From Chloranthus sessilifolius (taxonomy: Eukaryota > Streptophyta > Magnoliopsida > Chloranthales > Chloranthaceae), in the NCBI GenBank assembly GCA_021018995.1, contig CM037597.1, forward strand, positions 1,873,299 through 1,937,298: a stretch of 64,000 bases of DNA, read 5' to 3'. Shown piece by piece: positions 1,352 to 59,201 of the stretch; within the stretch, counting starts at the first letter, position 1, and every line of letters begins with the position of its first letter. The notes beneath the pieces are model-generated. The model worked only from the letters and a program-made list of their open reading frames with translations, was not told where the DNA came from and did no database searches. The translations under genes and the position numbers were made by a program.

Positions 1352-2344
1352 TGACGGGGACACCAAGTACGTGGACATTGGTTTTGGACCACATCGCTTC
1401 TACCGGCGTCGAAAGAAACGAAGGGAGAGCCCGAGTACATTAGCTTCAAGAGAGAAACGAAGGCAAAGGACAACATCAAGCGCATTAGGCGACAGACACC
1501 CGTAGATACAGCACGGACGTCCGAAATTTAGGCCCCTCACTGTTTTGGAGGGACGGACGTCCGTAGTGCCCCACAAACGTTCGTGGTTCTGAGTCCGTAG
1601 GTCACGGATGCCCGTGAACGTTGTGCCGCCAGCGACGGGATTTCGTTATTTTATGCGGAAATTGCCTCTTTAGTCTTTTATTTTGATTAGGACTCTTTAT
1701 TTCGAATTTTTATTATTGGTGGCCTACATAAGGAAGCTTGTAAAGACAATTTAATTAGTTTTTGAATATTTTGAATGCATTATTGCTTGAATATTCTTCT
1801 TCCCGAGATGGGTTTGGTGTGAGGCCAAGGGAGTGATTCTCATATATCTTCTTGCTTATCTTTTGTCATCTATTTTCTTGATCTTTCATTATATTTGCTA
1901 TTTATCGATCTCTGCTTACTTTTCAAAATCCCAATCTATTGATTTCTTGATCTCAAACCCACCCTAAACCCTTTTCTAGAACCCTAAATCAAACAGAGTC
2001 CAATCCCTTTTCTAAACCATAAACCTAAACCAAACCATAAGCCTATTACAAAACCAATTCCACAACCCTAGTTTGAGCCCGTAAGCCTACATTGGATCAA
2101 AGACGAACGCCCAAGCCTGAAAAACGCTAGAGTTCTATCTCTAGGCCGATCTCGCCTCAAATCTAATAGTACTTGCGCATCAGACTGGACCCTAACTGGA
2201 TCTCGCGTGATCTACCAACCTGAATTCTCTAAACCCTAAGGTATTTAAGATAGTTTTGAGATTAAGCTTGATTTAATTTTATTTAATTTAGGCCAAATCG
2301 TATAAAATCATAATCACGCATTTTAGGGTTACCGTCCTGTGTCA
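1352..2344 (+). repeat. 5' LTR of gypsy-1
   Basis: Matches 7011-7989 almost along its full length. U3 holds paired 12-bp palindromes (near 1492, 1513, 1553, 1573 and 1604). The R/U5 part includes the segment GGTTTGGTGTGAGGCCAAG, shared in diverged form by the other two gypsy LTRs in the window. The only TATA-like site seen is a weak CTACATAAGG near 1724. Confidence 0.93.
1492..1624. repeat. Palindromic-word array in gypsy-1 5' LTR
   Basis: Degenerate copies of the 12-bp palindrome ACGGACGTCCGT start at 1492, 1513, 1553, 1573 and 1604. Spacing is 21 bp and 20 bp within the two pairs. The 3' LTR repeats the layout at 7160, 7181, 7221, 7241 and 7272. Confidence 0.75.
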
Positions 2345-7010: not shown

Positions 7011-7989
7011 TGACGGGGACGCCGAGTATGTTGACATTGGTTTTGGACCACATCACTACTACTGGCGTCGAAAGAAACGAAGGGAGAGTCTGAGTAGCCC
7101 GAGTATATCAGCTTCAAGAGAGAAACGAAGGCAAAGGACAACATCAGGCGCATTAGGCGACAGGCGTCCGTAGATTCAGCACGGACGTCCAGAATTTAGG
7201 CCCCTCACTGTTTTGGAGGGACGGACGTCCGCAGTGCCCCACAAACATCCGTGGTTCTGAGTCCGTAGGTCATAGACGTCCGTGAACGTCGTGCCGCCAT
7301 CGACGGGATTTCGTTATTTTCTATGGAAATTGCCTTTTTAGTCTATTATTTTGATTAAGATTCTTTATTTTGAATTTTAATTATTGGTGGCCTACATAAG
7401 GAGGCTTATAAAGACAATTTAATTAGTTTTTGAATATTTTGAATGCATTATTGCTTGAATATTCTTCTTCCCGAGATCGGTTTGGTGTGAAGCCAAGGGA
7501 GTGATTCCCATGTATCTTCTTGCTTATCTTTTGTCATCTATTTTCTTAATCTTTCATTATATATACTATTTATCGATCTCTGCTTGCTTTTCTAAACCCA
7601 ATCTATTGATTTCTTGATCCCAAACCCTAAACCCCTTTCTAGAAACCTAAATCAAACAAAGCCCAAACCCTTTTCTAAACCATAAGCCTATTACAAAACC
7701 AATTCCGCAACCCTAGTTCGAGCCCGTGAGCTTACATCAGATCGAAAACGAACGCCCAAACCTGGAAAAAGCTAGAGTTCTATCTCTAGGCTGATCTTGC
7801 CTCAAATCTAATAGTACTTGCGCATCGAACTGGGCCCTAACTAGATTTCGCGTAATCTACCAACCTGAATTCTTTGAATCCTAAGGTATTTAAGATAGTT
7901 TTGAGATTAAGTTTGATTTAATTTTATTTAATTTCGGTAAAATCGCATAAAATCATAGTCACCCATTTTAGGGGTACCGACCTGTGTCA
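7011..7989 (+). repeat. 3' LTR of gypsy-1
   Basis: Aligns with 1352-2344 with scattered substitutions and small indels, so the insertion is not recent. A short purine stretch AGGGGAA just before 7011 is the candidate polypurine tract. Confidence 0.93.
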
Positions 7990-9333: not shown

Positions 9334-9512
9334 CCCATAAATGATCCCCCACTCTAAATTTGCCAACTATCTCTTCTTCATGTGAGTTCTACCGGAGTTG
9401 AACCATACTCCCCCCCCCCCCCCCCCCCCGGGCCAATAAATGATCCCCCACTCTAAATTTGCCAGCTATCTCTTCTTCATGTGAGTTCTACCAGAGTTGA
9501 ACCATACACCCC
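9334..9512. repeat. Tandem duplication with poly(C) junction
   Basis: A roughly 75-bp segment starting CCATAAATGATCCCCCACTC at 9334 recurs from 9433 (period about 99 bp). The two copies are separated by a run of about 20 C residues at 9410-9429. The second copy differs by a few substitutions and ends in a shorter C-rich stretch. Confidence 0.85.
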
Positions 9513-11037
9513 CGCCCCCTCTCTCCGTACTTGCAAGCAATGCCCTTAGTGGGTTATCCACATCTCGATGTTAATCCCAACATCCTTAGATGACACCAAT
9601 AATTTGCCTAATGTTTCCTGCCTTAAGCTACATAGAAATGAATCATCTCCAACCTTCTGATCGGATGTTAGTGATCTTTTTACCTATAGTGTCATATGGC
9701 GTTGATCTAATGGGCTCATCAATCAGTATCCTTATGCTTAATGCTCCCTCCAAGGGCATTAGGGTGTTTCTGTACACCTCGATACCACCAGTTGACACTT
9801 GTAAGGTCTTAGTACAATTTATTTTAAGTAGCCAAAAAATTTGATTTCTGATGTAGAAAAGGAAAGCAATAATAATCTCTTGTTGGAGCCGCAAGTGTCC
9901 TTGTGAATGGTAGCTTGGCATTAGTTATCAAACTGGAACCACATGTCAGGTATGCCCCCCCTTGGGAGATCTGCATAGGCCGACAAGTCGACCGCAATCA
10001 ACCACGATGCAGCGGGCCATCCCAACAGGATTCAGAATATTTGGAACCACAGATTGCAGCCGTAGATCTTTCCCACGTCAAAATCTCAAGGTCCTCTGGT
10101 CTCATCGAAAGCACTTAACAAGTTCGAACCCTGATGCATGTCATCTATCCCAAAACCATGACGTGGCAGCTCATTTACCAATGATCGATTCCATTGCCCT
10201 TCGCCAATAGTATTTGAGTAGTAGCAAAGGGCTTCATCCAAAAATGATTTCAAATTTACATTTGAATTTGAATTTTAAACACGCCCACCGTCTGACTTCG
10301 TACAACCCCTCTCCGTAGCCCTTCTCTCTCCACCGTTCGATTTAACCCAAGGTCTTTAGTATGCTTGTTTTCACCAATAGTCTGATTTGCCTCAGAAGCC
10401 ATTGATCTAGGAAAACTAATCTCAGCCGTAGATTCCTTTCAACAATCGGACAACTGAGGTCTAATCTTTCCGACGCCCACCATCGATTACAAGATGCCAC
10501 CCAAGTCCGGCTAAGCATCGTCAAACGAGATTTCACATCCCTCCAACTCACCGTTGCCTCCATTCGGCAGCTGACTCCCATCATTTCCGAGAATCTCCGT
10601 TCTTTCAATCCCAAAACCATGCCTTAATGTCGGATCCTCAAATGACTCATGAAGACCAAATTTCCTTTGACTGCGTGTATCTTAGGTCCCGTGTCGTGTA
10701 TCTCGGGTGCCCGACCCCTTCATCTACCACTACAATTGGAACTGTTAATATCTATGTCACCCTTTCTACATCGATGGGTTACCTGAAGCATCATCTTGTC
10801 AGGGTCACTGCGGGCTAAATGCGACACCTAACGCGATCGCTAAATCAGCCTAATTCAATTCACGCAGCGGATTCGGATCTTATGAGTATGATGCTTGGCT
10901 GTTCAAGCTTCAACCTCGACCAATGAGCGTGGAATGATGGCGGCGATGACGATAGATCGATGGCGATAATTATGGCAAACCTTGTTTACGGGAGTTAAGC
11001 AAAACGATAGCGCGTAACATTAGCATAGCCAGATAAT
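9513..11037. other. Intergenic or intronic stretch without recognisable gene
   Basis: Short ORFs occur on both strands (for example 9590-9844 plus and 10342-10620 minus), but none shows a domain I recognise. Part of it could be old LINE 5' sequence, given the minus-strand LINE to its left; that is only inference. Confidence 0.4.
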
Positions 11038-26557: not shown

Positions 26558-27611
26558 GTTGGATATTTAACAAAATAAATATTTATTATTATTAATTTAA
26601 TAATATTAATTTATTAGTTTATTTATTAGTTGCTTATCTTTAAATGGTTCCTTAAATTTATTGGTTCCACGAATAAAAGATGTTGTCAATACTTGAACCT
26701 TCAACCTTCAAGTCAAAATGACTTGAATTTTGAATTAATATTGGAGGGAAATTTTTCCCATCATAAGTTTAAAAATGTTGCAAATATTTTGTCCCACCTC
26801 ACTATTTTATAAGAAATATTCATGACTTATATATAGAAACTTACCTTCCATATTGTTTGGCTTGATGAGAGGAACATAGCTCATAGTGGCAGTTCGCCGT
26901 CACGCACGCACGCGCGTATGCGATATGCAAATGGCGCAATTGACACTTTTAAGGCGCACTTTGCACTTCGCACGACCACATCGTCGTGAGGAACCTTTCC
27001 TATTTGATCTGAGATGGTCTGATCGGTTGACTTGTTGATCGGGCATGGATTGTCTTCACACATGTGCACCGCATGTGTGCACTAGGCAGTTTTCGACCAT
27101 TCATGGAAACGGTCGGATTCTGGATTAGAACAAACAGTTAGGATTTCGGATTCAGACAAGTCAATTAATGACTGTTGAACACCAAAAGTTGTAACTGTTC
27201 AAGTGTGACCGTTGGATCCTTGCAACCGTTGATCGGATCGATCAGGGCCCTCGATTGCAAGCAACCGACAGACACAACCGCCCTGAAAAGGTGCTCCGAA
27301 AGTTATAAATAGAGGTCAGAGGAGGGATTCTAATTCACTTGCAATTTCAGAATCCTACATCTGAGCCCTCAGAATTCGTGTCCTAATTAGAGCATTCTGT
27401 ATCTTCGTTTCGTTGGGTCGAACACTACAGTGCAACGTAATGTGTGACAGATCGGTGCTTCACGGAGGCTTCACTGTATTCTGGAGGCGAATTTGTTGTT
27501 ATCCCGTTGCATATAGGGGGCAAATATTGTCTTAAAGACAGCGATATAATCGTGCCTTGAAGCCATTTTTTCCGATCTATTTTTCGTCAATATTTGTGCA
27601 ATCCACCAATA
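26558..27611 (+). repeat. 3' LTR of the copia element
   Basis: Full-length version (1054 bp), retaining the U3/R promoter region. Its last 866 bp were duplicated together with downstream sequence (see 26746-29340). Confidence 0.85.
27304..27311 (+). promoter_or_regulatory. TATA box of the copia 3' LTR
   Basis: TATAAATA in a GC-richer context. The duplicated LTR fragment has its own copy at 28595-28602; the 5' LTR has none. Confidence 0.65.
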
Positions 27612-27621
27612 AATATTAATA

Positions 27622-27627
27622 ATCACA

Positions 27628-27664
<37 letters not shown>
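27622..27664. repeat. (TA)n(GA)n microsatellite
   Basis: About 7 TA and 12 GA units. The duplicate at 28919-28966 is longer in both parts. Confidence 0.9.
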
Positions 27665-27670
<6 letters not shown>

Positions 27671-28003
27671 GGTGTCCGTCCTCTAAGGTTTCAGGTAAAA
27701 GTTCATGTGACATCCAAAACATTGTTTCAATGCCACATGGACTTCGGGTGCATTGCTTAAATCATTTTTTTTTAAGTATAATTTTGAAAACTCATCTCCA
27801 TCATGTGTTTTTTGAGCTGTGAAAAGTAGACTATTGAAACTAGTCAAACGTTGACTTATACTTTTAAAAAGCCTTTTTTGAATTTTTTTTATTTTAAATT
27901 GATCTAAACCATCCACCCGTACTCCGTGGCAATTAAAGAGTGTTTTTGGTGCCATGTGCACCTCTATGTGGACCTTGGAGGACGGTGACCGTCCTTCCAT
28001 GAA
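27665..28003. mobile_element. MITE family M2, copy a
   Basis: Starts GGAAAAGGTGTCCGTCC and ends near GGAGGACGGTGACCGTCC. It shares GCATTGCTTAAATCATTTTT and the GATCTAAACCATCCACC block with the copies at 44071 and 46229. Flanked by TA repeats on both sides. Confidence 0.7.
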
Positions 28004-28917
28004 ATATATATATGTTGTGACCAAACACAGGCTTTAAAAATGGTGGGAAATTTTTCCCACCATAAGTTTAAAAATTTTGCAAATATTTTGTCCCACCTCA
28101 CTATTTTATAAGAAATATTCATGACTTATATATAGAAACTTACCTTCCATATTGTTTGGCTTGATGAGAGGAACATAGCTCATAGTGGCAGTTCGCCGTC
28201 ACGCACGCACGCGCGTATGCGATATGCAAATGGCGCAATTGACACTTTTAAGGCGCACTTTGCACTTCGCACGACCGCATCGTCGTGAGGAACCTTTCCT
28301 ATTTGATCTGAGATGGTCCGATCGGTTGACTTGTTGATCGGGCATGGATTGTCTTCACACATGTGCACTGCATGTGTGCACTAGGCAGTTTTCGACCGTT
28401 CATGGAAACGGTCGGATTCTGGATTAGAACAAACAGTTAGGATTTCAGATTCAGACAAATCAGTTAATGACTGTTGAACACCAAAAGTTGTAACTGTTCG
28501 AGTGTGACCGTTGGATCCTTGCAACCGTTGATCGGATCGATCAGGGCCCTCGATTGCAAACAGCCGAACACGCACGAAAAGGTACTCCGAAAGTTATAAA
28601 TAGAGGTCAGAGGAGGGATTCTAATTCACTTGCAATTTCAGAATCCTACATCTGAGCCCTCAGAATTCGTGTCCTAATTAGAGCATTCTGTATCTTCGTT
28701 TCGTTTGGTCGAACACTACAGTGCAACGTAATGTGTGACAGATCGGTGCTTCACCGAGGTTTCACTGTATTCTGGAGGCGAATTTGTTGTTATCCCGTTG
28801 CATATAGGGGGCAAATATTGTCTTAAAGACAGCGATATAATCGTGCCTTGAAGCCATTTTTTCCGATCTATTTTTCGTCAATATTTGTGCAATCCACCAA
28901 CAAATATTAATAATCAC

Positions 28918-28966
<49 letters not shown>

Positions 28967-28971
<5 letters not shown>

Positions 28972-29308
28972 GGTGTCCGTCCTCTAAGGTTTCAGGTAAA
29001 AGTTCATGTGACATCCAAAACATTGTTTCAATGCCACATGGACTTCGGGTGCATTGCTTAAATCATTTTTTTTTAAGTATAATTTTCAAAGCTCATCTCC
29101 ATCATGTGTTTTTTGAGCTGTGAAAAGTAGACTATTGAAACTAGTCAAACGTTGACTTATACTTTTAAAAAGCCTTTTTTGAAATTTTTTTATTTTAAAT
29201 TGATCTAAACCATCCACCCGTACTCCGTGGCAATTAAAGAGTATTTTTGGTGCCATGTGCACCTCTATGTGGACCTTGGAGGACGGTGACCGTCCTTCCA
29301 TGAAATAT
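28967..29308. mobile_element. MITE family M2, copy b (duplicate of copy a)
   Basis: Identical layout to 27665-28003; it arose by the 1.3-kb tandem duplication and not by an independent insertion. Confidence 0.75.
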
Positions 29309-29431
29309 ATATATGTTGTGACCAAACACAGGCTTTAAATGGAAAAAAATGTTACAAGTTTAAAACGTTTTTTGCATTTGCACAAGTTGGTGGGTGAGAT
29401 TACTTTTGAGACTATATAAATATGTAAAATG

Positions 29432-32664: not shown

Positions 32665-35109
32665 TGTGACAGCCCAAATTTCGGTACCCCGAAACCCGTG
32701 CCATCAGCACGATCCTCCAGACTGTGCCCCAAAACTATGCACGAAATATTGGTATAACAAGCAAAGATAAATAATTAAAGTAAATAATTGCATAAAACAG
32801 AAAAGTAGCATGCCCATCTAGCATAACCAAAAGACAGTTCTACTTTCATGCCACTGCATGAACAGAGAACCGACCCGAACCATCGGTGATAAACAGATCA
32901 CCCCTGATGGTTCGCCAAAAGAAATAATCAAGTTAATTACATTGCTCATCAAAATAAAGGCTTGACATACCAAGCCGTACAATCTATTCTCAAAAACTAC
33001 TCTCTGTCAAAGTACACAGCAGAGTCTCCTAGAAAAAATCCTCGGGAGGAGGCTCCAACTCGTCCCTAGGCACGTAATCTAAATCACCCGGATCAACGCC
33101 TCCCGAAGCCTCAGCTGCTACCGACAAAGGACCTGCGACGTATAGTCTAAAGGGGTGAGCTACATCCTAGCTCAATAGGGAACAACACAATGAACATATA
33201 AATTAAAACTCACATATATTCCATCATATTCTAAGCATGATGTGTTTATACATTAGCTAGAAAACAGTTTAAAAAGCTGATGATTTACATTCAAGTTTAC
33301 TGATAATTTGCATGTCTTACTTTACTGTTGATTTATCATGAATGACACTGAACAGGCCTAAAGCAAAACTTAAATTTTCAACTTAAGTAATCCCCGAGCA
33401 ATATAGCATCGAGCCCCGATGAGATACCGTTCATCGTCGTCTAAATAGACAGTTGTTAAAAATATATTCCCTGGGAATACGACCCAAGCCCCTTTCTCAA
33501 TAGGCGGCGGGATTAAAACTCATCTCAACATCTCTGGGATGTGCTTACTGTGTACGAATAAACCTCCGCACTGGTGTACGGATTGGCCGTCGTACCAGTC
33601 ACAAATATCCTGCCGCATCAGTCGTGGGTATCCCGCCACGTCAGTGGGGTATCCTAAACAAACCTTAAATAACAAAAATAACATGTGCTTTATATATAGT
33701 TGTTCACCGTGTAAGGTGCTATCTTATATCAGTTAGGCCTCAACAGTAATTATTCAATCATATATACATCCCTGGAATGTATAACTTACTCGCATCACAC
33801 TGATGCCTTTATTTCTTTCTCATCTCTTGAGGATGTCTCATTCTAAGTAGATTACTTGATCTTAGTTACTCGCATCACACAGATGCCTTTATCACATTTT
33901 TGGTGTCACACACACACCCATTTTCACAAAGCTTTTCATAGTTAAAACATTTTCAATTCTGATAAATATATCACTACATACATGCTCTTGTAATTAAAGT
34001 ACATGTTCAAGGTGTTCCCTACCTCAATTCTCTGAAGGTCCAAGCATCAAGGTCCCACGCGGCGCCTTGTGCTTGCTTTCACACGTACCACCTATGGTAC
34101 ATCACAACACATGCAATATATCACTAAAGATGTAATAAAGAATGTCTTAGACCCTCCCTCAATCTCAAAGTAAAATTTAAAAGTCAACTGAATCTGCCAA
34201 AATCGATTAATCAAAATCCAAAATCGATTAATCAAAATCCTTGGCATAGCAAAGTCAATTCTCAAATCGAGTAGTCGATGTCCGAAATCGATTAATCGAA
34301 ATCCAAAATCGATTAATCGATTTCTCAACTCGATTAGTCGATTTCCTCAGGTCATGTTTCTCCAGCCACTAGAGGTACCCAGTCGATTAGTTGATTCCCA
34401 AATCGATTAATCGAACATCCAAATCGATTAATTGAAATCCAATTCGATTAATCGAAATCGGGCTTACCTGGCTTTTCAACTTCTCAGCCAAAATCGATAA
34501 ATCAAATCCCAATTTCGATTAATCGATTTGGCCAGATTCAGCCCCCTTTCGAGCTCTTCTTCCAAATCTTTTCCTTTTCTTTTCTAAGCATTTAATTTAT
34601 CCTTTTAACCCTACTTGACTGAATTTAATCATTTACAATCTATGCATTAACTTCAATTAAAACTCACCTCAATAAATCCCTTTAAAGGATTGCTTCGTTG
34701 GGTTTGATGGCTAGGGTTCCAGCCTTTGCTTCAACGATCCCAAATCGCTTTGAATCCGACAATAAATGCTCTAGTCAGCCCTTTTGATTTGCATTCACTC
34801 CTACATCAATAACTCCTCTTGCTTTCTCCCTCTCTCTCTCTTCTTAATTCCTTCACCAACCAAAATAAAAGGATTCTACGGTTATTAAACCCTTATATCC
34901 TCCTTTAGTTTCGGTGTTAAGCGCATACACCGGAGATAGGTGTATGAAACTGTAATTTAACACCATACTCTACACTTAGGTCACATTCGCACCACTTCAG
35001 TTCATCACTCCATGAGTGCATTGTTTGGCCATCACTTGGTCAACCCTATGACTAATCGGACACAGATTCTGAGGTCAAAGTTAAACATTAAATTTTTCGG
35101 GATATTACA
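32665..35109. mobile_element. Solo LTR, 2445 bp, with 5-bp TSD
   Basis: Starts TGTGACAGCCCAAATTTCGG and ends CGGGATATTACA, with TG/CA termini typical of plant gypsy LTRs. The exact duplication ATAGA flanks it at 32660-32664 and 35110-35114. No internal region or second LTR is present, consistent with LTR-LTR recombination. It carries a 12-copy palindromic array at 34203-34526. Orientation is probably plus but not proven. Confidence 0.85.
34203..34526. repeat. Phased TCGATTAATCGA palindrome array
   Basis: Twelve variants of the 12-bp palindrome TCGATTAATCGA start at 34203, 34224, 34267, 34288, 34309, 34330, 34383, 34403, 34424, 34444, 34494 and 34515. Within clusters the step is 20 or 21 bp. 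Confidence 0.9.
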
Positions 35110-50347: not shown

Positions 50348-53300
50348 ATGTCTCTTTTCTTCTTTCTCTCTTTCCCCCTTCTTCTCTCTGCTTCTCCTCC
50401 TTATCCCTACGGTAAGCTTCTCTACGTCTACTTCTCTATTTTCCAACTAAATTTAACTGATTTCTTGTTTCACTTCTCGATTTTTGTTAGTTTTCTTGTT
50501 TGATTTGATATATAAAATGGCCGCCTAGATCGGTTTTAATGTTGAATGCATATGTAGTTGATTGCCATTCTTTGCTTCTTCTTGAATTAAATCTGAAAAT
50601 GGAGATTTTCGAAACAGTAAATAGAAGATTCGTCAGATTATTCTTTTTTTTTTAATAACGGAATTTAACTGATTTCCTCTTCTACTACTCCATTTTTGTT
50701 AGTTTTCCAACTAAATTTAACTGATTTTTTGTTTCACTTTTAGATTTTTGTTAGTTTTCTTGTTTGATTTGATATATAAAATGGCCGCCTAGATCGGTTT
50801 TAATGTTGAATGCAGATGTAGTTGATCGCCATTCTTTGCTTCTTCTGATTATTGGAATTAAATCTGAAAAAGGAGATTTTCGAAACAGTAAATAGAAGAT
50901 TCGTCAGATTATTCTTTTTTTCTTTATATAACGGAATTTAACTGATTTCCTCTTCTACTCCTACATTTTTGTTAGTTTTGTTTTTTGATTTGAAGTATAA
51001 AATTGCCTGATGATTGATTTTAGTGTTAAATACAGATGTAATTAACCGGAATTCTGCTTGTTATTTATTTATTTTTAAATTTTTTTGCTTACTTATGGAA
51101 ATTAATTGTTAATCTTACTGAGATTTGTCAGATTATTCTATTTTCTTTTTTGGATCGAGATTTGTTTATATATTGATTTTGTTAGTTTCTATTTTGATTT
51201 TTCAACCAAATTTAACTGATTTCTTGTTGTACTTATGGATTTTGTGTTTCTATTTTGATTTGGTATATAAAATGGACTAATGATTGGTTTTAATGTTAAA
51301 TGCAGATGTCATTAATCGGCATTCTCTGCTTCTTCTGTTAATTTTTTAATTTTTTGTTTAGTCATGGAAATTAGAACTGGAAAAAGAAAATTTTTGAATC
51401 AGTAAATAGAAGATTCCTCAGATTATTCTATTTTTTAAGAAAATTTAACTGATTTCTTCTGCTGCTCCTCCATTTTTGTTAGTTCTCTATTGATTTGAAG
51501 TTGTAGATATTAAAGCAGTAAAAGAAGGTTCGTCAGAGTATTCCATTTTCTTTTTTGGATCGAGGTTTGTTTGTTTACTTATTTGCATCTTTGCTTCAGA
51601 TTGATGCAATTTAGGAATTTCGCTAAGTTTCTGATCGGGTCTGTACTTTAGCTCTATGTTTCAGCACAATTGAACTGATTTCTTATTTTACTTCTCCATT
51701 TTGTTATTTTCTTTTATGATTTGATTGATACATCAAATGGCTTCATGATTGGTTTTATTGTTAAATACAACTGTAATTAATCGGCATTCTCCGTTTCTTC
51801 TGATTATTTTATCTTTTGTTTTTATTTTTTTCACTAATTATGGAAATTAATCAGTAAAAAGAAGATTTTGAATCAGGAACGAGAAGATTTGTCAGATTAT
51901 TCTATTTTTCTTTTTTGGATCGAGATTTGTTTATTTATTGATTCCCAATGTTGCAATTTAGGAATTTCTCTTATCTCTCCTGCATTTCTGATCTCGTCTG
52001 TACTTTAGCTTTATGTTTTAGCATGGTTGAACTGATTTCTTGTTTTAGTTCTCAATTGTGTTTATTTTCTTTTGGATTTATAACAAGGCTTAATGATTTG
52101 TTTTAATACTAAATCCAAGTGTAACTAATCAGCATTGTCTGCTTCTTTTGATTTTTCTCTTTTCGCTGAATTATGGAAATTACACCAGTGAAAGAAGATT
52201 TTCAAATCTTATTGGAGATTCTTCAGATTGTTCTATATTTTTCTTTTTGGATCCAGATTTATTTGTTTGTTGATTAACAACTGTGTCTCAGTAGAAATTT
52301 CACTTAGAGTCGCCGAAATTTCTGATTTCGTCTGTACTTTCGCTCAATCTTTTACCAAAATTGAACCAATTTCCTGTTCTACTCGTCCATTTTTGTTAAT
52401 TTTCTTTATTAGTTTCAAATACAAAAACTAATTGGCATTGTTTGCTTCTTCTGATCTTTTATGCACTCCTAAGATATGGAGACTAAAACAGTGAAAAAGA
52501 GATTTTTGAATCTTACGGATATTCTTCAGATTATTCTATTTCTTTTGGATATCTGATATCATCTGTACTTTTTGCTGCTTTAAGATCTTTGCTCTATTCG
52601 GAAATTACTTTATTTACATATTTAAAGAAAAGAAAAAGTTTCATTTAAATTTCTAATGAACAATTCGTTCTCTCTCGCTCACTTGCAGATACTTCGTATC
52701 TGATAGATTGTATTTTTGTTAATTTTCTTTATTAGTTTCAAATACAAAAACTAATTGGCATTGTTTGCTTCTTCTGATCTTTTATGCACTCCTAAGTTAT
52801 AGAAACTAAAACAGTGAAAAAGAAAATTTTGAATCTTACAGATATTCTTCAGATTATTCTATTTTTTTTGGATATCTGATATCATCTGTACTTTTTGCTG
52901 CTTTAAGATCTTTGCTCTATTCGTAAATTACTTTATTTACATATTTAAAGAAAAGAAAAAGTTTCATTTAAATTTCTAATGAACAATTCGTTCTCTCTCG
53001 CTCACTTGCAGATACTTCGTATCTGATAGATTGTATTTTTGTTAATTTTCTTTATTAGTTTCAAATACAAAAACTAATTGGCATTGTTTGCTTCTTCTGA
53101 TCTTTTATGCACTCCTAAGTTATGGAAACTAAAACAGTGAAAAAGAAAATTTTGAATCTTACGGATATTCTTCAGATTATTCTATTTTTTTTGGATATCT
53201 GATCTCATCTGTAGTTTTTGCTGCTTTAAGATCTTTGCACTATTCGGAAATTACTTTATTTACATATTTAAAGAAATGAAAAAATTTCATTTAAATTTCT

Positions 53301-55044
53301 AATGAACAATTCATTCTCTCTTGCTCACTTGCAGATACTTCGTATCTGATAGATTGTGGTGGGGCAGGGAACTTCACTAGCCAATTCAATCGATCATGGA
53401 CCGCCGATCGGTTCTATACCGGTGGCGCACCGGGTCTAGTTTCAGAACCACACAATTTCCTCTTACCACAAGAACAAACACTAAGATTCTTTCCAATTTC
53501 ATTTGGGAAAAAAAGCTGTTACATTGTTAACGTCCCGAAGGGGCGGTACTACATAAGAACGTTTACTGTGTACGACAATTACGATAGCAAGCTGCATTCT
53601 CCTAGTTTCGATGTTTCTATCGAGGGAACGCTAGTTTTCAGTTGGAGATCGCCTTGGCCAGAGGACGTAAGCAAAAACGGGGCTTACTCTGATCTTTTTA
53701 CCTTTGTAAATGATGGAGAGGCTGATGTTTGTTTCTATAGTATTGCCACAGATCCCCCTGTGATTGGTTCGCTTGAAATAATACAAGTTGATCCATTATC
53801 TTATGATTCGTCCACTACTGGCAGCGACCTCATATTGGTAAACTATGGGCGATTGACTTGTGGCTCAAATACGTTCGGGCCTGGATTTAGTAATGATACA
53901 GATTTGTTTGGGAGATCTTGGCAATCCGATTCAAATTTCCACAATGATAATTCCAATGTAAGGGCTCTGTCAACGAGGAACAACATTCTTGGTGCTAATC
54001 AAGCACCAAATTACTTTCCGACTTGGTTGTATCAGAGCGCTGTCACGGCTCCGGTTAATGCAATTTTAGAGTATTTGTTGCCTGTTGATACAAGGTTGGA
54101 TTACTTGGTTTGGTTTCACTTTGCGGAGATTGATTCGAGCATCACTAAGGCTGGTCAGCGGGTTTTTGATGTGTATATTAATCAGAAGAATGTGAGTAGG
54201 ATGGATATATTCAAGGAAGTTGGTAGTTTTGTTGCATTCAAATGGCATTATATTGTTAAAAATTTGAATAGCACGCCATTGAGTGTGAAGCTTGTTCCGG
54301 TTGTCGGTGCTCCATTAATAAATGGCCTTGAAAACTATGCCATGGTTCCGTTGGATCTTTCAACTGTTCCTGATGAAGGTATTTAGCATATTGTCTTTTG
54401 AAATTGCTTGAGTTCCTTTACTCTTGTAACACAAATGCTATTAGTTTTCCTTTTGTAATGTTTTCTGTCAATCAATATTTTTTTCTCTATCATATACTTT
54501 AAACTTTAAAGAAAAAAAGATTAATGTGGCGTAACCTTCATCAATAGATGGGATGCTCAATCATGCACTTTGGCCGCATAACCCAAATCCTTGATCAATC
54601 CAAGTCGTCCAAGTTGCAGATCATCATGTGACCGAGGTTAGCCTATAATTGGTGTCCATATTGAAGTTCTGGGATTGGATGATACTTAACTGCTGCAGGT
54701 GTATTTTTGGGCTAAGTGTTCACATGATGTTTCACTACTTGGACGAAGTGGATGTGCCACGTGGAAACAGGTGCACATGTGAACATCCCATCTGTTAAAT
54801 GCAGGTGACCAAAGTCGATCTCAAGAAGCAAATTACTTCAGAAGAGAGTGTGAAGTTTATGTCAACTTGATCAATGGCTATTTGATTTTGCAGTAAATGG
54901 AATGAGGGCACTAAAGGAGTCACTCCGCATTCCTGATAGAATGGGTTGGAATGGAGATCCATGCGCTCCTTCCACTTGGGATGCATGGGAGGGTGTTACT
55001 TGTCATCATAGTGCAGATGGAGCTGGGCTTGTTGTCACTCAATT
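50348..55044 (+). CDS. Malectin-like/LRR receptor-like protein, 5' exons (RLP4-like)
   Basis: Three exons join in frame: 50348-50411, 53335-54378 and 54894-55044, giving 419 codons plus two bases with no stop. Exon 1 encodes a signal peptide (MSLFFFLSFPLLLSASPPYP). Exon 2 encodes the extracellular malectin-like domain: DTSYLIDCGGAGNFTSQFNR, SFGKKSCYIVNVPKGRYYIR, YLVWFHFAEIDSSITKAGQR and FDVYINQKNV. Exon 3 gives the hinge between malectin-like and LRR parts with the GDPC motif (WNGDPCAPSTWDAWEGVTC). This order is that of plant receptor-like proteins such as RLP4, or of LRR receptor kinases with malectin-like ectodomains. LRR, membrane and any kinase exons are not in the remaining 9 kb, which is filled by retroelements. 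Likely a plasma-membrane cell-surface protein; the ligand is unknown. Confidence 0.88.
50412..52388 (+). repeat. Degenerate tandem units in intron 1 of the RLP4-like gene
   Basis: Units of roughly 250-310 bp recur with decay: TTTTTGTTAGTTTTCTTG, AAAATGGCCGCCTAGATCGG, CATTCTTTGCTTCTTCT, CAGTAAATAGAAGATTCGTC and AGATTATTCT. At least seven units can be followed. Together with the 323-bp triplication they make up nearly the whole 2.9-kb intron. Confidence 0.75.
52389..53357 (+). repeat. 323-bp triplication containing the splice acceptor
   Basis: Units 52389-52711, 52712-53034 and 53035-53357 are nearly identical and each exactly 323 bp. Each ends with CTCACTTGCAG plus the first 23 nt of exon 2 (ATACTTCGTATCTGATAGAT and TGT). 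Acceptor AGs thus lie before 52689, 53012 and 53335; only the last leads into the open exon. Reading on from either decoy reaches a stop (TTTCTTTATTAG) within about 45 nt. Confidence 0.93.
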
Positions 55045-57993: not shown

Positions 57994-58722
57994 TGATCCG
58001 GGACGATGACCCTAGACTACGCGAATGAAGATGGAATGAATATTTGCCGAAATTAAACTAAACTAATTAAGCAACAAATCTTAAAATAACTGTGGTACCT
58101 TAGGGTTTCATGGTTTTCCGCTTGGATGATCATGTTGGCTCGGGTAGGGTCCAGTTCGTTGCGCTAGATCCATTAGCCTCGCGGAAGGAGGATCCTAGAG
58201 ATAGAACTCTAGCTGCTTCCAGATTAGGGCATTCGCTCATAGCTCAAAGGTGGGATCGCTGATTTTCTTAGGGTGTTTTGTTCAGAATGGATTAATGGCT
58301 CAGGTGAGATCTAGGGTTTATTGAATCGGGTCGATTCAACAATTCAAATGAAGGTTAGGGTTTGGAATTCGGTGGATTTAATTTGGGATGAAATGAAATG
58401 GGGTTTATGGGATTAGACAATAAGGTAGAGAAAAGATACGTCAAAATAGGGATAAAAGATAGAAAATTGTTGGCTTCGCATCCTTGGCTTTTCACACCAA
58501 ACCCTTCGTGGGAGAGGAGATTCACTCTTCAAAATTGCTCATCTCAAGCAGAAGCAAAAGAGCGTTTCATTCATAATCAATTAACTAATTATATTGTTTA
58601 ATAATGACCTTATATAAGAGGCCTCTAAAACAAAAGAAAACCCTAAACAAATACTCTAAAAAGGACAAGTTTGCTCCGAAATTTTAATTCCCGTCTTTTG
58701 GCGGAGCCCACTTACGCGAAAA

Positions 58723-59011
58723 ATCGATCGATCGATGCTAAGCTCGATCGATCGAGTTATATATATATATATAATTATATAAAAGTCTCGGGTCACTAAT
58801 CGATCGATCGAAAATTGTACTCGATCGATATATATATATATATATCGATCGATTGATTTGTGACCCGAGACTTTTATATAATTATATATAGGTTCACATT
58901 CGATTGATCGAAAATTACCTTCGATCGATCGATTGAGAACAAAACTTCGCCAAAATTTTAAATTCCCACTAACCACAATTGATCGATCGAAGCTTGAGAT
59001 TGATCAATCGA
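58723..59011. repeat. Phased TCGATCGATCGA palindrome array
   Basis: Words start at 58723/58744, 58800/58821 (then 58845), 58900/58921 and 58979/59000. Each pair is 21 bp apart. The array occupies U3 of the gypsy-2 LTR. Confidence 0.9.
58770..58886. repeat. Perfect 27-bp-arm hairpin in gypsy-2 U3
   Basis: Arms at 58770-58796 and 58860-58886 are exact inverses (core AAAAGTCTCGGGTCAC). The 63-nt loop holds palindromic words and a (TA)n run. Confidence 0.95.
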
Positions 59012-59201
59012 CTGTGCATTCCTTTGTGTGCTCCTTTATGTTTGGTTTTGATTGCCTTTATGCCTGGTTCTGGTTTCTGTCTCGTTTCTTCTGGCGCTGG
59101 TATACGCGATATGGTCCAAAGCCTATGTCTACAATGTCGGCGTCTTCGTCAAATCTCTCAGACCGAAAATGCTTCATTACCGATGAAGTGGAATCGTGAT
59201 A

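What the first reader, a model, noticed from the sequence alone, without database searches (positions are those of the whole stretch)
58723..59011. Helically phased palindrome arrays in LTR U3, with the word exchanged between related LTRs
Three LTRs carry arrays of 12-bp perfect or near-perfect palindromes mostly stepped by 20-21 bp, that is two DNA turns: ACGGACGTCCGT in gypsy-1 (1492-1615 and 7160-7283), TCGATCGATCGA in gypsy-2 (here) and TCGATTAATCGA in the solo LTR (34203-34526). The gypsy-1 and gypsy-2 LTRs align on both sides of the array (TTTGGACCA block before, CCGCCA-GACGGGA block after) and the array starts about 140 bp inside each, yet the words differ. One reading is a set of paired sites for a dimeric DNA-binding factor whose specificity changes between lineages, with the repeats kept homogeneous by conversion. 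Spacing on one helix face argues for protein binding or nucleosome phasing over chance.
Basis: partly seen in the sequence, partly recalled or inferred. Interest (0 to 1): 0.8.

Follow-up and report, generated by a model that had tools for sequence, protein, structure and literature searches.

The report
Switchable palindrome arrays in retrotransposon promoters
In this plant-like genome, retrotransposon promoters carry rows of a 12-letter DNA palindrome spaced about two helix turns apart, and related elements keep the layout but change the word, which looks like evolving docking sites for a paired protein.

Summary
The arrays are real and far beyond chance. In the 2.17-Gb host genome, exact word pairs at most 30 bases apart number 7358 (TCGATCGATCGA), 1921 (ACGGACGTCCGT) and 129894 (TCGATTAATCGA). 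Reversed-letter controls and two words with only the outer bases swapped give 0. Of the listed places, 74-84% have a 19-23 bp step, though spacers differ. Sampling relatives of gypsy-1 and gypsy-2 by a site outside the array gave a fourth abundant word (TCGCTCGAGCGA, 6122 pairs) and a lineage without array. Words of this LTR group share the frame N-CG-NN-CG-N'N'-CG-N'; the unrelated solo LTR has TA in the centre. On a tree of array-free flanks, words follow lineages and change rarely. Corrections: in the named array only half the steps are 20-21 bp, gypsy-2's longer gaps are not phased, and the window's gypsy-1 copies are decayed. Best reading: a U3 enhancer of paired sites for dimeric DNA-binding factors, with words replaced between lineages. 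Closest known: palindromic motifs of Sirevirus (Copia) LTRs; here the carriers are Ty3/gypsy and three of four words lack the Sirevirus core. Protein binding is untested.

The parts
58723..59011 (-). gypsy-2 U3 array, word TCGATCGATCGA, 9 recognisable words, in pairs about 20-21 bp apart
58043..59151 (-). gypsy-2 LTR on the integrase side (3' LTR); bounds approximate, from alignment with gypsy-1 (58043 is the last aligned base, the LTR may run some 50 bases further)
58609..58616 (-). TATA-like match TATATAAG, about 107 bp downstream of the array; four other TATA-like matches lie in the AT-rich spacers of the array
1352..2344 (+). gypsy-1 5' LTR
   Evidence: PBS-like TGGTATCAAAG at 2349
1492..1615 (+). 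gypsy-1 5' LTR array, word ACGGACGTCCGT, partly decayed
1725..1731 (+). TATA-like match TACATAA of gypsy-1 (loose pattern), about 110 bp downstream of the array
1811..1830 (+). conserved 20-base site downstream of the TATA-like match, used as the array-blind anchor
7011..7989 (+). gypsy-1 3' LTR, 88.6% identical to the 5' LTR
7160..7283 (+). gypsy-1 3' LTR array, decayed
32665..35109 (-). solo LTR, TG...CA, flanked by ATAGA on both sides; strand inferred from a purine-rich tract beside the LTR in relative L053
34203..34526 (-). solo LTR array, word TCGATTAATCGA, 12 recognisable words
33690..33696 (-). TATA-like match of the solo LTR, about 510 bp downstream of the array

Best explanation
The arrays are the upstream enhancer part of the LTR promoter. 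Each 12-bp palindrome is one site for a DNA-binding protein that sits as a symmetric dimer. Two or more sites 19-23 bp, about two helix turns, apart put neighbouring dimers on the same face so that they can touch and bind together. The LTR group of gypsy-1 and gypsy-2 keeps the layout (CG at word positions 2, 6 and 10, two-turn step, place upstream of a TATA-like match), while the variable letters, and with them the protein read, change between lineages. Shown: words, spacing, whole-word specificity of the enrichment, lineage-wise word replacement, position. Inferred: protein binding, dimerisation, cooperation, activation, and that the pressure to change comes either from use of another host factor or from escape of host silencing.
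For: Exact pairs within 30 bases genome-wide: 7358, 1921, 129894, 6122; the tool's reversed-letter control, itself a palindrome of the same letters, is 0 in these four. Words with only the outer base pair exchanged: ACGATCGATCGT 0, TCGGACGTCCGA 0. Listed places with a step of 19-23 bp: 42 of 50, 37 of 50, 61 of 77, 38 of 50 in that order. For TCGATCGATCGA the 28 listed pairs at exactly 21 bp have 23 distinct spacers, so this is not one copied unit. Words are better conserved than the spacers between them in three families (0.797/0.664, 0.823/0.773, 0.931/0.897, 25 of 30, 14 of 16 and 30 of 30 copies aligned). Arrays lie about 110 bp (gypsy-1, gypsy-2) and 510 bp (solo) upstream of a TATA-like match. 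Word labels on the flank tree need 4 changes against 22.0 in shuffles.
Against: No protein, binding, expression or chromatin data. One lineage with the same flanks has no array (L033); 5 array-blind loci of that lineage show no words either, though their fetched stretch stops 190 bp before the anchor. In gypsy-1 the words are less conserved than the LTR outside the array (0.797 against 0.876; gypsy-2 0.823/0.815, solo 0.931/0.880), and word columns were chosen by likeness to the word, which favours the word-over-spacer result. There is no excess of symmetric double changes inside words, so palindromy is seen in the word but not as compensation. CpG retention in words is only slightly above CpGs elsewhere (0.782/0.751, 0.691/0.647, 0.821/0.791). 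gypsy-1 also uses steps of 23, 31 and 43 bp. TATA-like boxes are consensus matches only.
Confidence: 0.55

Rival explanations
1. RNA-structure reading: the palindromes act in the transcript, where neighbouring copies pair into hairpins. Such structure could serve RNA dimerisation or be the place where host small RNAs are made, and words change to escape them.
For: Two of three arrays fold far better than shuffles as RNA: gypsy-2 z -12.6, solo z -7.5. Palindrome clusters in maize Sirevirus LTRs are small-RNA hot spots (passages of PMC5311732, and PMC10760457).
Against: gypsy-1 array z only -1.2, 21 of 200 shuffles fold as well. Hairpins need copies complementary to each other, not a fixed two-turn step. 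Cross-word compensatory changes are not above the null (4, 3 and 11 seen; null 4.5, 4.9 and 13.2). The arrays lie upstream of the TATA-like matches. The gypsy-2 fold is inflated by a long inverted repeat of that copy.
Confidence: 0.2
2. Neutral tandem repeats: the arrays grew by slippage and unequal exchange in fast-evolving U3 DNA and do nothing; the 20-21 bp step is the length of the duplicated unit.
For: Copy number varies between copies, and some spacers recur, such as GAACAGTG in the gypsy-1 family. Distinct spacers are more alike than composition predicts (42% against 29%). gypsy-1 words are less conserved than the LTR outside the array.
Against: Same word with 23 distinct spacers among 28 pairs at a fixed step; swapped-outer-base words absent as pairs; the same step with different words; words better kept than spacers although rich in CpG.
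Confidence: 0.12
3. Epigenetic reading: the CG frame is what matters. The word clusters are CpG-rich targets whose methylation state switches the promoter, or they are read by a sequence-specific anti-silencing protein made by some transposon, as VANC does for VANDAL elements.
For: CG at fixed word positions; CpG observed/expected 1.04-1.25 over the four LTR stretches against 0.80 for the window; many deviations are CpG transitions (81 of 107 in gypsy-2, 56 of 118 in gypsy-1, 197 of 440 in the solo family), as expected of methylated CpG. VANC motifs are tandem, non-coding and change between families (PMC5735166 passages).
Against: CG alone does not explain why exchanging only the outer base pair abolishes the pairs. 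No extra gene was recognised in gypsy-1: of three stretches tested, two gave RT/RNase H and integrase and one gave no family; a search for such a gene elsewhere was not made.
Confidence: 0.13

Closest known systems
Palindromic repeated motifs (RM) of Sirevirus (Ty1/copia) LTRs, Bousios et al. 2010, PMC2829016 (read: abstract and other passages, and section 9)
   Same: Many copies of a short, mostly CG-bearing palindrome in the LTR, upstream of the TATA box, with the motif differing between elements. The Usier motif GTCGGACGTCCGAC holds CGGACGTCCG, the core of the gypsy-1 word; the Tnd-1 motif ACAATCGATTGT holds ATCGAT.
   Different: Here the gypsy-1/gypsy-2 elements are Ty3/gypsy (RT before integrase; chromodomain in a relative). 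Three of four words lack the CGG-CCG core. The two-turn step, the shared CG frame and word replacement inside one alignable LTR group are not in the passages read. That paper calls its motif Sirevirus-specific and absent from the classic retrotransposons it compared. The Usier-type 12-mer has 0 pairs here.
[quoted passage not shown] 2016 Genome Research (not held; known from passages of PMC5311732 and PMC10760457)
   Same: Fast-evolving palindrome clusters in the LTR regulatory region, thought to be in conflict with host silencing.
   Different: Copia elements of maize; small-RNA data there, none here.
Variable 5' CpG islands in LTRs of Del (Ty3/gypsy) elements, PMC4029996 (passages)
   Same: Ty3/gypsy LTRs with a CG-rich, length-variable region in the 5' half, lineage-specific.
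   Different: A word search of its main text found no 'palindrom' and no 'tandem'; its eudicot Del elements had no CpG island.
VANC/VANDAL sequence-specific anti-silencing, PMC5735166 (passages)
   Same: Short motif multiplied in non-coding DNA; motif and reader protein change between families.

Membership tests
Sirevirus repeated motif (RM) | carried by Sirevirus (Ty1/copia) elements | tested here: not met
   gypsy-1: RT/RNase H before integrase; chromodomain directly before the LTR in relative L108. The solo family was not classified by protein.
Sirevirus repeated motif (RM) | palindromic motif in at least eight copies per element | tested here: inconclusive
   Words per locus at up to 2 mismatches: solo family 11-29 in 30 of 30 loci (some loci hold extra arrays), gypsy-2 5-9 in 16 of 16, gypsy-1 0-6 in 30 loci; counted per locus with mostly one LTR, not per element.
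Sirevirus repeated motif (RM) | CGG-CCG core | tested here: not met
   Met by ACGGACGTCCGT only; not by TCGATCGATCGA, TCGATTAATCGA, TCGCTCGAGCGA. One Sirevirus motif, Tnd-1, lacks it too.
Sirevirus repeated motif (RM) | cluster shortly upstream of the TATA box | tested here: met
   About 110 bp from a TATA-like match for gypsy-1 and gypsy-2; about 510 bp for the solo LTR, which is not short.
VANC/VANDAL-type anti-silencing system | element-encoded protein that binds the motif | not tested
   No search for such a gene was made beyond four protein stretches of the window.
VANC/VANDAL-type anti-silencing system | multiplied motif that differs between related families | tested here: met
LTR enhancer made of paired dimer sites | a protein binds the word, better as a pair at two turns | not testable with these tools
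   needs binding assays
LTR enhancer made of paired dimer sites | self-complementary word at a two-turn step across different words | tested here: met

The most novel reading that the evidence does not exclude
A modular site code. Ty3/gypsy LTRs of this genome carry arrays written in one frame, N-CG-NN-(CG or TA)-N'N'-CG-N', at a two-turn step. Each lineage uses one whole word out of the possible ones, and a family of related dimeric proteins (host-encoded or carried by other elements) reads them. Element lineages jump from one reader to another by replacing all words of the array while the promoter around it stays alignable, in a race with silencing.
Probability: 0.3. Interest if true: 0.85.

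Novelty: new variant of a known kind. Interest (0 to 1): 0.62.

Why it matters
If the words are sites of dimeric factors, this genome holds over a hundred thousand exact word pairs with a measured step and interchangeable words. That is ready material for finding which factors wake LTR retrotransposons and how elements change masters. It also carries a feature described for Copia Sireviruses over to Ty3/gypsy elements and gives it a measurable rule (frame plus two-turn step).

Tried and rejected
A fifth word was suspected from the decayed array of L101. TCGCCCGGGCGA gave 16 pairs and TCGCCCAGGCGA 4 forward and 2 reverse, so it is not established as an abundant word. Compensatory changes, inside words (dimer site) or across neighbouring words (hairpin), were not above shuffles in any of the three families. 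CpG retention in words is only slightly higher than elsewhere, so selection cannot be read from CpG loss after insertion. Phasing of the longer gaps holds in gypsy-1, partly in the solo family and not in gypsy-2, so a strict one-face rule was dropped. The uniform null behind the P values is crude and the places are not independent, so I use the fractions, not the P values. The listed places are the first ones along contig 1, not a random draw.

Rows left out of counts: 5 of 30 gypsy-1 and 2 of 16 gypsy-2 copies in the alignments (no usable LTR segment), which one search also used; 3 of 55 loci in the tree (weak flank match: L008, L076, L110); loci without a flank match, among them two of the three TCGCTCGAGCGA loci (L094, L096), so that word has one row in the tree.

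Literature: searches of the held library for the words themselves (1 paper, unrelated, 171 papers held at least one of the strings, 20 listed, none of those on plant LTRs by title) and for palindromic LTR motifs gave the Sirevirus and Del papers as closest. I cannot say that the Ty3/gypsy case is absent from print outside these searches.

Full report
Setting. The window is part of a 2.17-Gb genome in 32 contigs; it is unnamed, and I take it for a plant from its genes and repeats. gypsy-1 is a plus-strand Ty3/gypsy element with LTRs 1352-2344 and 7011-7989 (88.6% identical), a PBS-like site at 2349 and RT/RNase H before integrase. gypsy-2 is its relative on the minus strand (RT/RNase H 61386-60661; similarity to gypsy-1 over 61806-59082), so the named array 58723-59011 lies in the U3 of its 3' LTR. 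A relative of the group, L108, has a chromodomain directly before its LTR, so the group is chromovirus-like. The array 34203-34526 lies in a solo LTR, 32665-35109, with duplication ATAGA; after masking of the words it shares nothing with the gypsy-1/gypsy-2 group. Its minus orientation follows from a purine-rich tract beside the LTR in L053.

The observation. All three words occur as stated. Against 1000 dinucleotide shuffles, like pairs of near-palindromes 19-23 bp apart stand out in three of the four arrays; the gypsy-1 3' LTR copy has none by this strict count. In the named array the words stand in pairs: steps 20, 56, 21, 24, 55, 21, 58, 21.

Family copies, fetched by likeness to LTR stretches of about 1 kb that include the array, not by the word. 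With up to 2 mismatches, 29 of 30 gypsy-1 loci hold at least two ACGGACGTCCGT words (L037 none), 16 of 16 gypsy-2 loci hold 5-9 TCGATCGATCGA words, and 30 of 30 solo-family loci hold 11-29 TCGATTAATCGA words. Steps between consecutive words peak at 20 and 40 (then 23) in gypsy-1, at 21 in gypsy-2 and at 21 (19-21) in the solo family.

Genome-wide counts. Exact pairs at most 30 bases apart: TCGATCGATCGA 7358, ACGGACGTCCGT 1921, TCGATTAATCGA 129894, TCGCTCGAGCGA 6122. The tool's built-in control (the pattern reversed, a palindrome of the same letters) is 0 each time. Controls that keep the CG frame and the inner letters but exchange the outer base pair are 0 too: ACGATCGATCGT, TCGGACGTCCGA. Among listed places, steps of 19-23 bp make up 42 of 50, 37 of 50, 61 of 77 and 38 of 50; a step of 40 is also common for ACGGACGTCCGT (12 of 50). 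The spacers differ: 23 distinct among 28 TCGATCGATCGA pairs at 21 bp, with 42% mean identity against 29% expected from composition. So the genome holds specific 12-base words at a set step with many different spacers.

Word replacement between related LTRs. To sample without looking at the array I used a conserved 20-base site downstream of the TATA-like match as anchor (2854 forward and 2919 reverse matches). I read the stretch 530-190 bases upstream of it for the first 22 listed places: 20 fetched, two already held (L079, L082). Result (with for the two held): ACGGACGTCCGT in 6; TCGATCGATCGA in 6, of which L102 is weak (its three decayed words fit TCGATTAATCGA equally well); TCGCTCGAGCGA in 3 (L094, L106 and, by eye and decayed, L096); an unresolved CG-bearing word in 1 (L101); no array in 6 (L095, L103, L104, L105, L107, L108). 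L095 shows no LTR flank. The other five have the flank of a nested LTR in L033, whose stretch from flank to TATA-like match could be read and has no array. Word TCGCTCGAGCGA was found in this way and then shown to be abundant. On a tree of the first 80 bases of the LTR, before the array (52 rows, 31 of 49 inner forks open), the words need 4 changes against 22.0 in shuffles. ACGGACGTCCGT occurs in two groups set apart by a long, fully supported branch, and TCGCTCGAGCGA (one row) and the array-less lineage sit next to an ACGGACGTCCGT row. Words therefore follow lineages and are replaced now and then while the flanks stay alignable. The direction of change is not known because the root is not known.

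A common frame. ACGGACGTCCGT, TCGATCGATCGA and TCGCTCGAGCGA all read N-CG-NN-CG-N'N'-CG-N'; the solo word TCGATTAATCGA keeps the outer CGs and has TA in the centre. Deviations from the word are CpG transitions in 81 of 107 cases in gypsy-2, 56 of 118 in gypsy-1 and 197 of 440 in the solo family. In gypsy-2 at least this suggests that words were near perfect at insertion and that their CpGs decayed as methylated CpGs do. Words are better conserved than the spacers between them in all three families (0.797/0.664, 0.823/0.773, 0.931/0.897), with two cautions: word columns were picked by likeness to the word, and in gypsy-1 the words are less conserved than the LTR outside the array (0.876).

Mechanism. 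The arrays end about 110 bp upstream of a TATA-like match in gypsy-1 and gypsy-2 and about 510 bp in the solo LTR. A self-complementary word points to a symmetric dimer; a step near 21 bp, two turns, puts neighbouring dimers on one face. Longer gaps are phased in gypsy-1 (0.75), partly in the solo family (0.53) and not in gypsy-2 (0.25), so the functional unit would be the pair or small cluster. Steps shown: word, frame, step, specificity, replacement, position. Steps inferred: protein, dimer, cooperation, activation, reason for replacement. The RNA rival has support in folding (z -12.6 and -7.5, but -1.2 for gypsy-1) and in the small-RNA literature on Sirevirus palindromes. It does not explain a two-turn step, and no cross-word compensation was seen.

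Comparison. Bousios et al. 2010 (PMC2829016; passages and section 9 read) described palindromic repeated motifs upstream of the TATA box in Sirevirus LTRs, with 13 motif-bearing elements whose motifs differ (OPIE-2 and PREM-2 share one). One, Usier GTCGGACGTCCGAC, has the same ten-base core as the gypsy-1 word. That paper remarks that minor variation may enable interaction with different nuclear factors. So the kind is known. What is added here: Ty3/gypsy carriers, words without the CGG-CCG core, a two-turn step measured on listed places genome-wide, a shared CG frame, and word replacement within one alignable LTR group, including a lineage without array.

Noticed in passing
58754-58892: The gypsy-2 array of the window holds a long, nearly perfect inverted repeat (arms with GTGACCCGAGACTTTTATATAATTATATA). 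By eye the other seven gypsy-2 copies printed show at most one such arm; it may come from template switching or conversion.
   Followed up: partly
L108, bases 2-160 and following: The reading frame with the chromodomain of this relative ends, by eye, in the TGA that is also the first letters of the LTR (TGACGGGG), so the LTR start doubles as the stop codon.
   Followed up: partly
L033, reverse strand, from about 2536: An LTR with flanks of the same group has lost, or never had, the palindrome array, so the array is not indispensable.
   Followed up: partly
52389-53357: Three head-to-tail copies of a 323-bp unit (96-97% identical) directly before an open frame (53295-54386) that looks like the extracellular part of a receptor kinase (by eye, not searched).
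   Followed up: no
26735-29339: Tandem duplication of about 1.3 kb, 96.7% identical.
   Followed up: no
9337-9519: Duplicated 99-bp unit with a run of about 20 C, possibly an assembly or polymerase slip.
   Followed up: no
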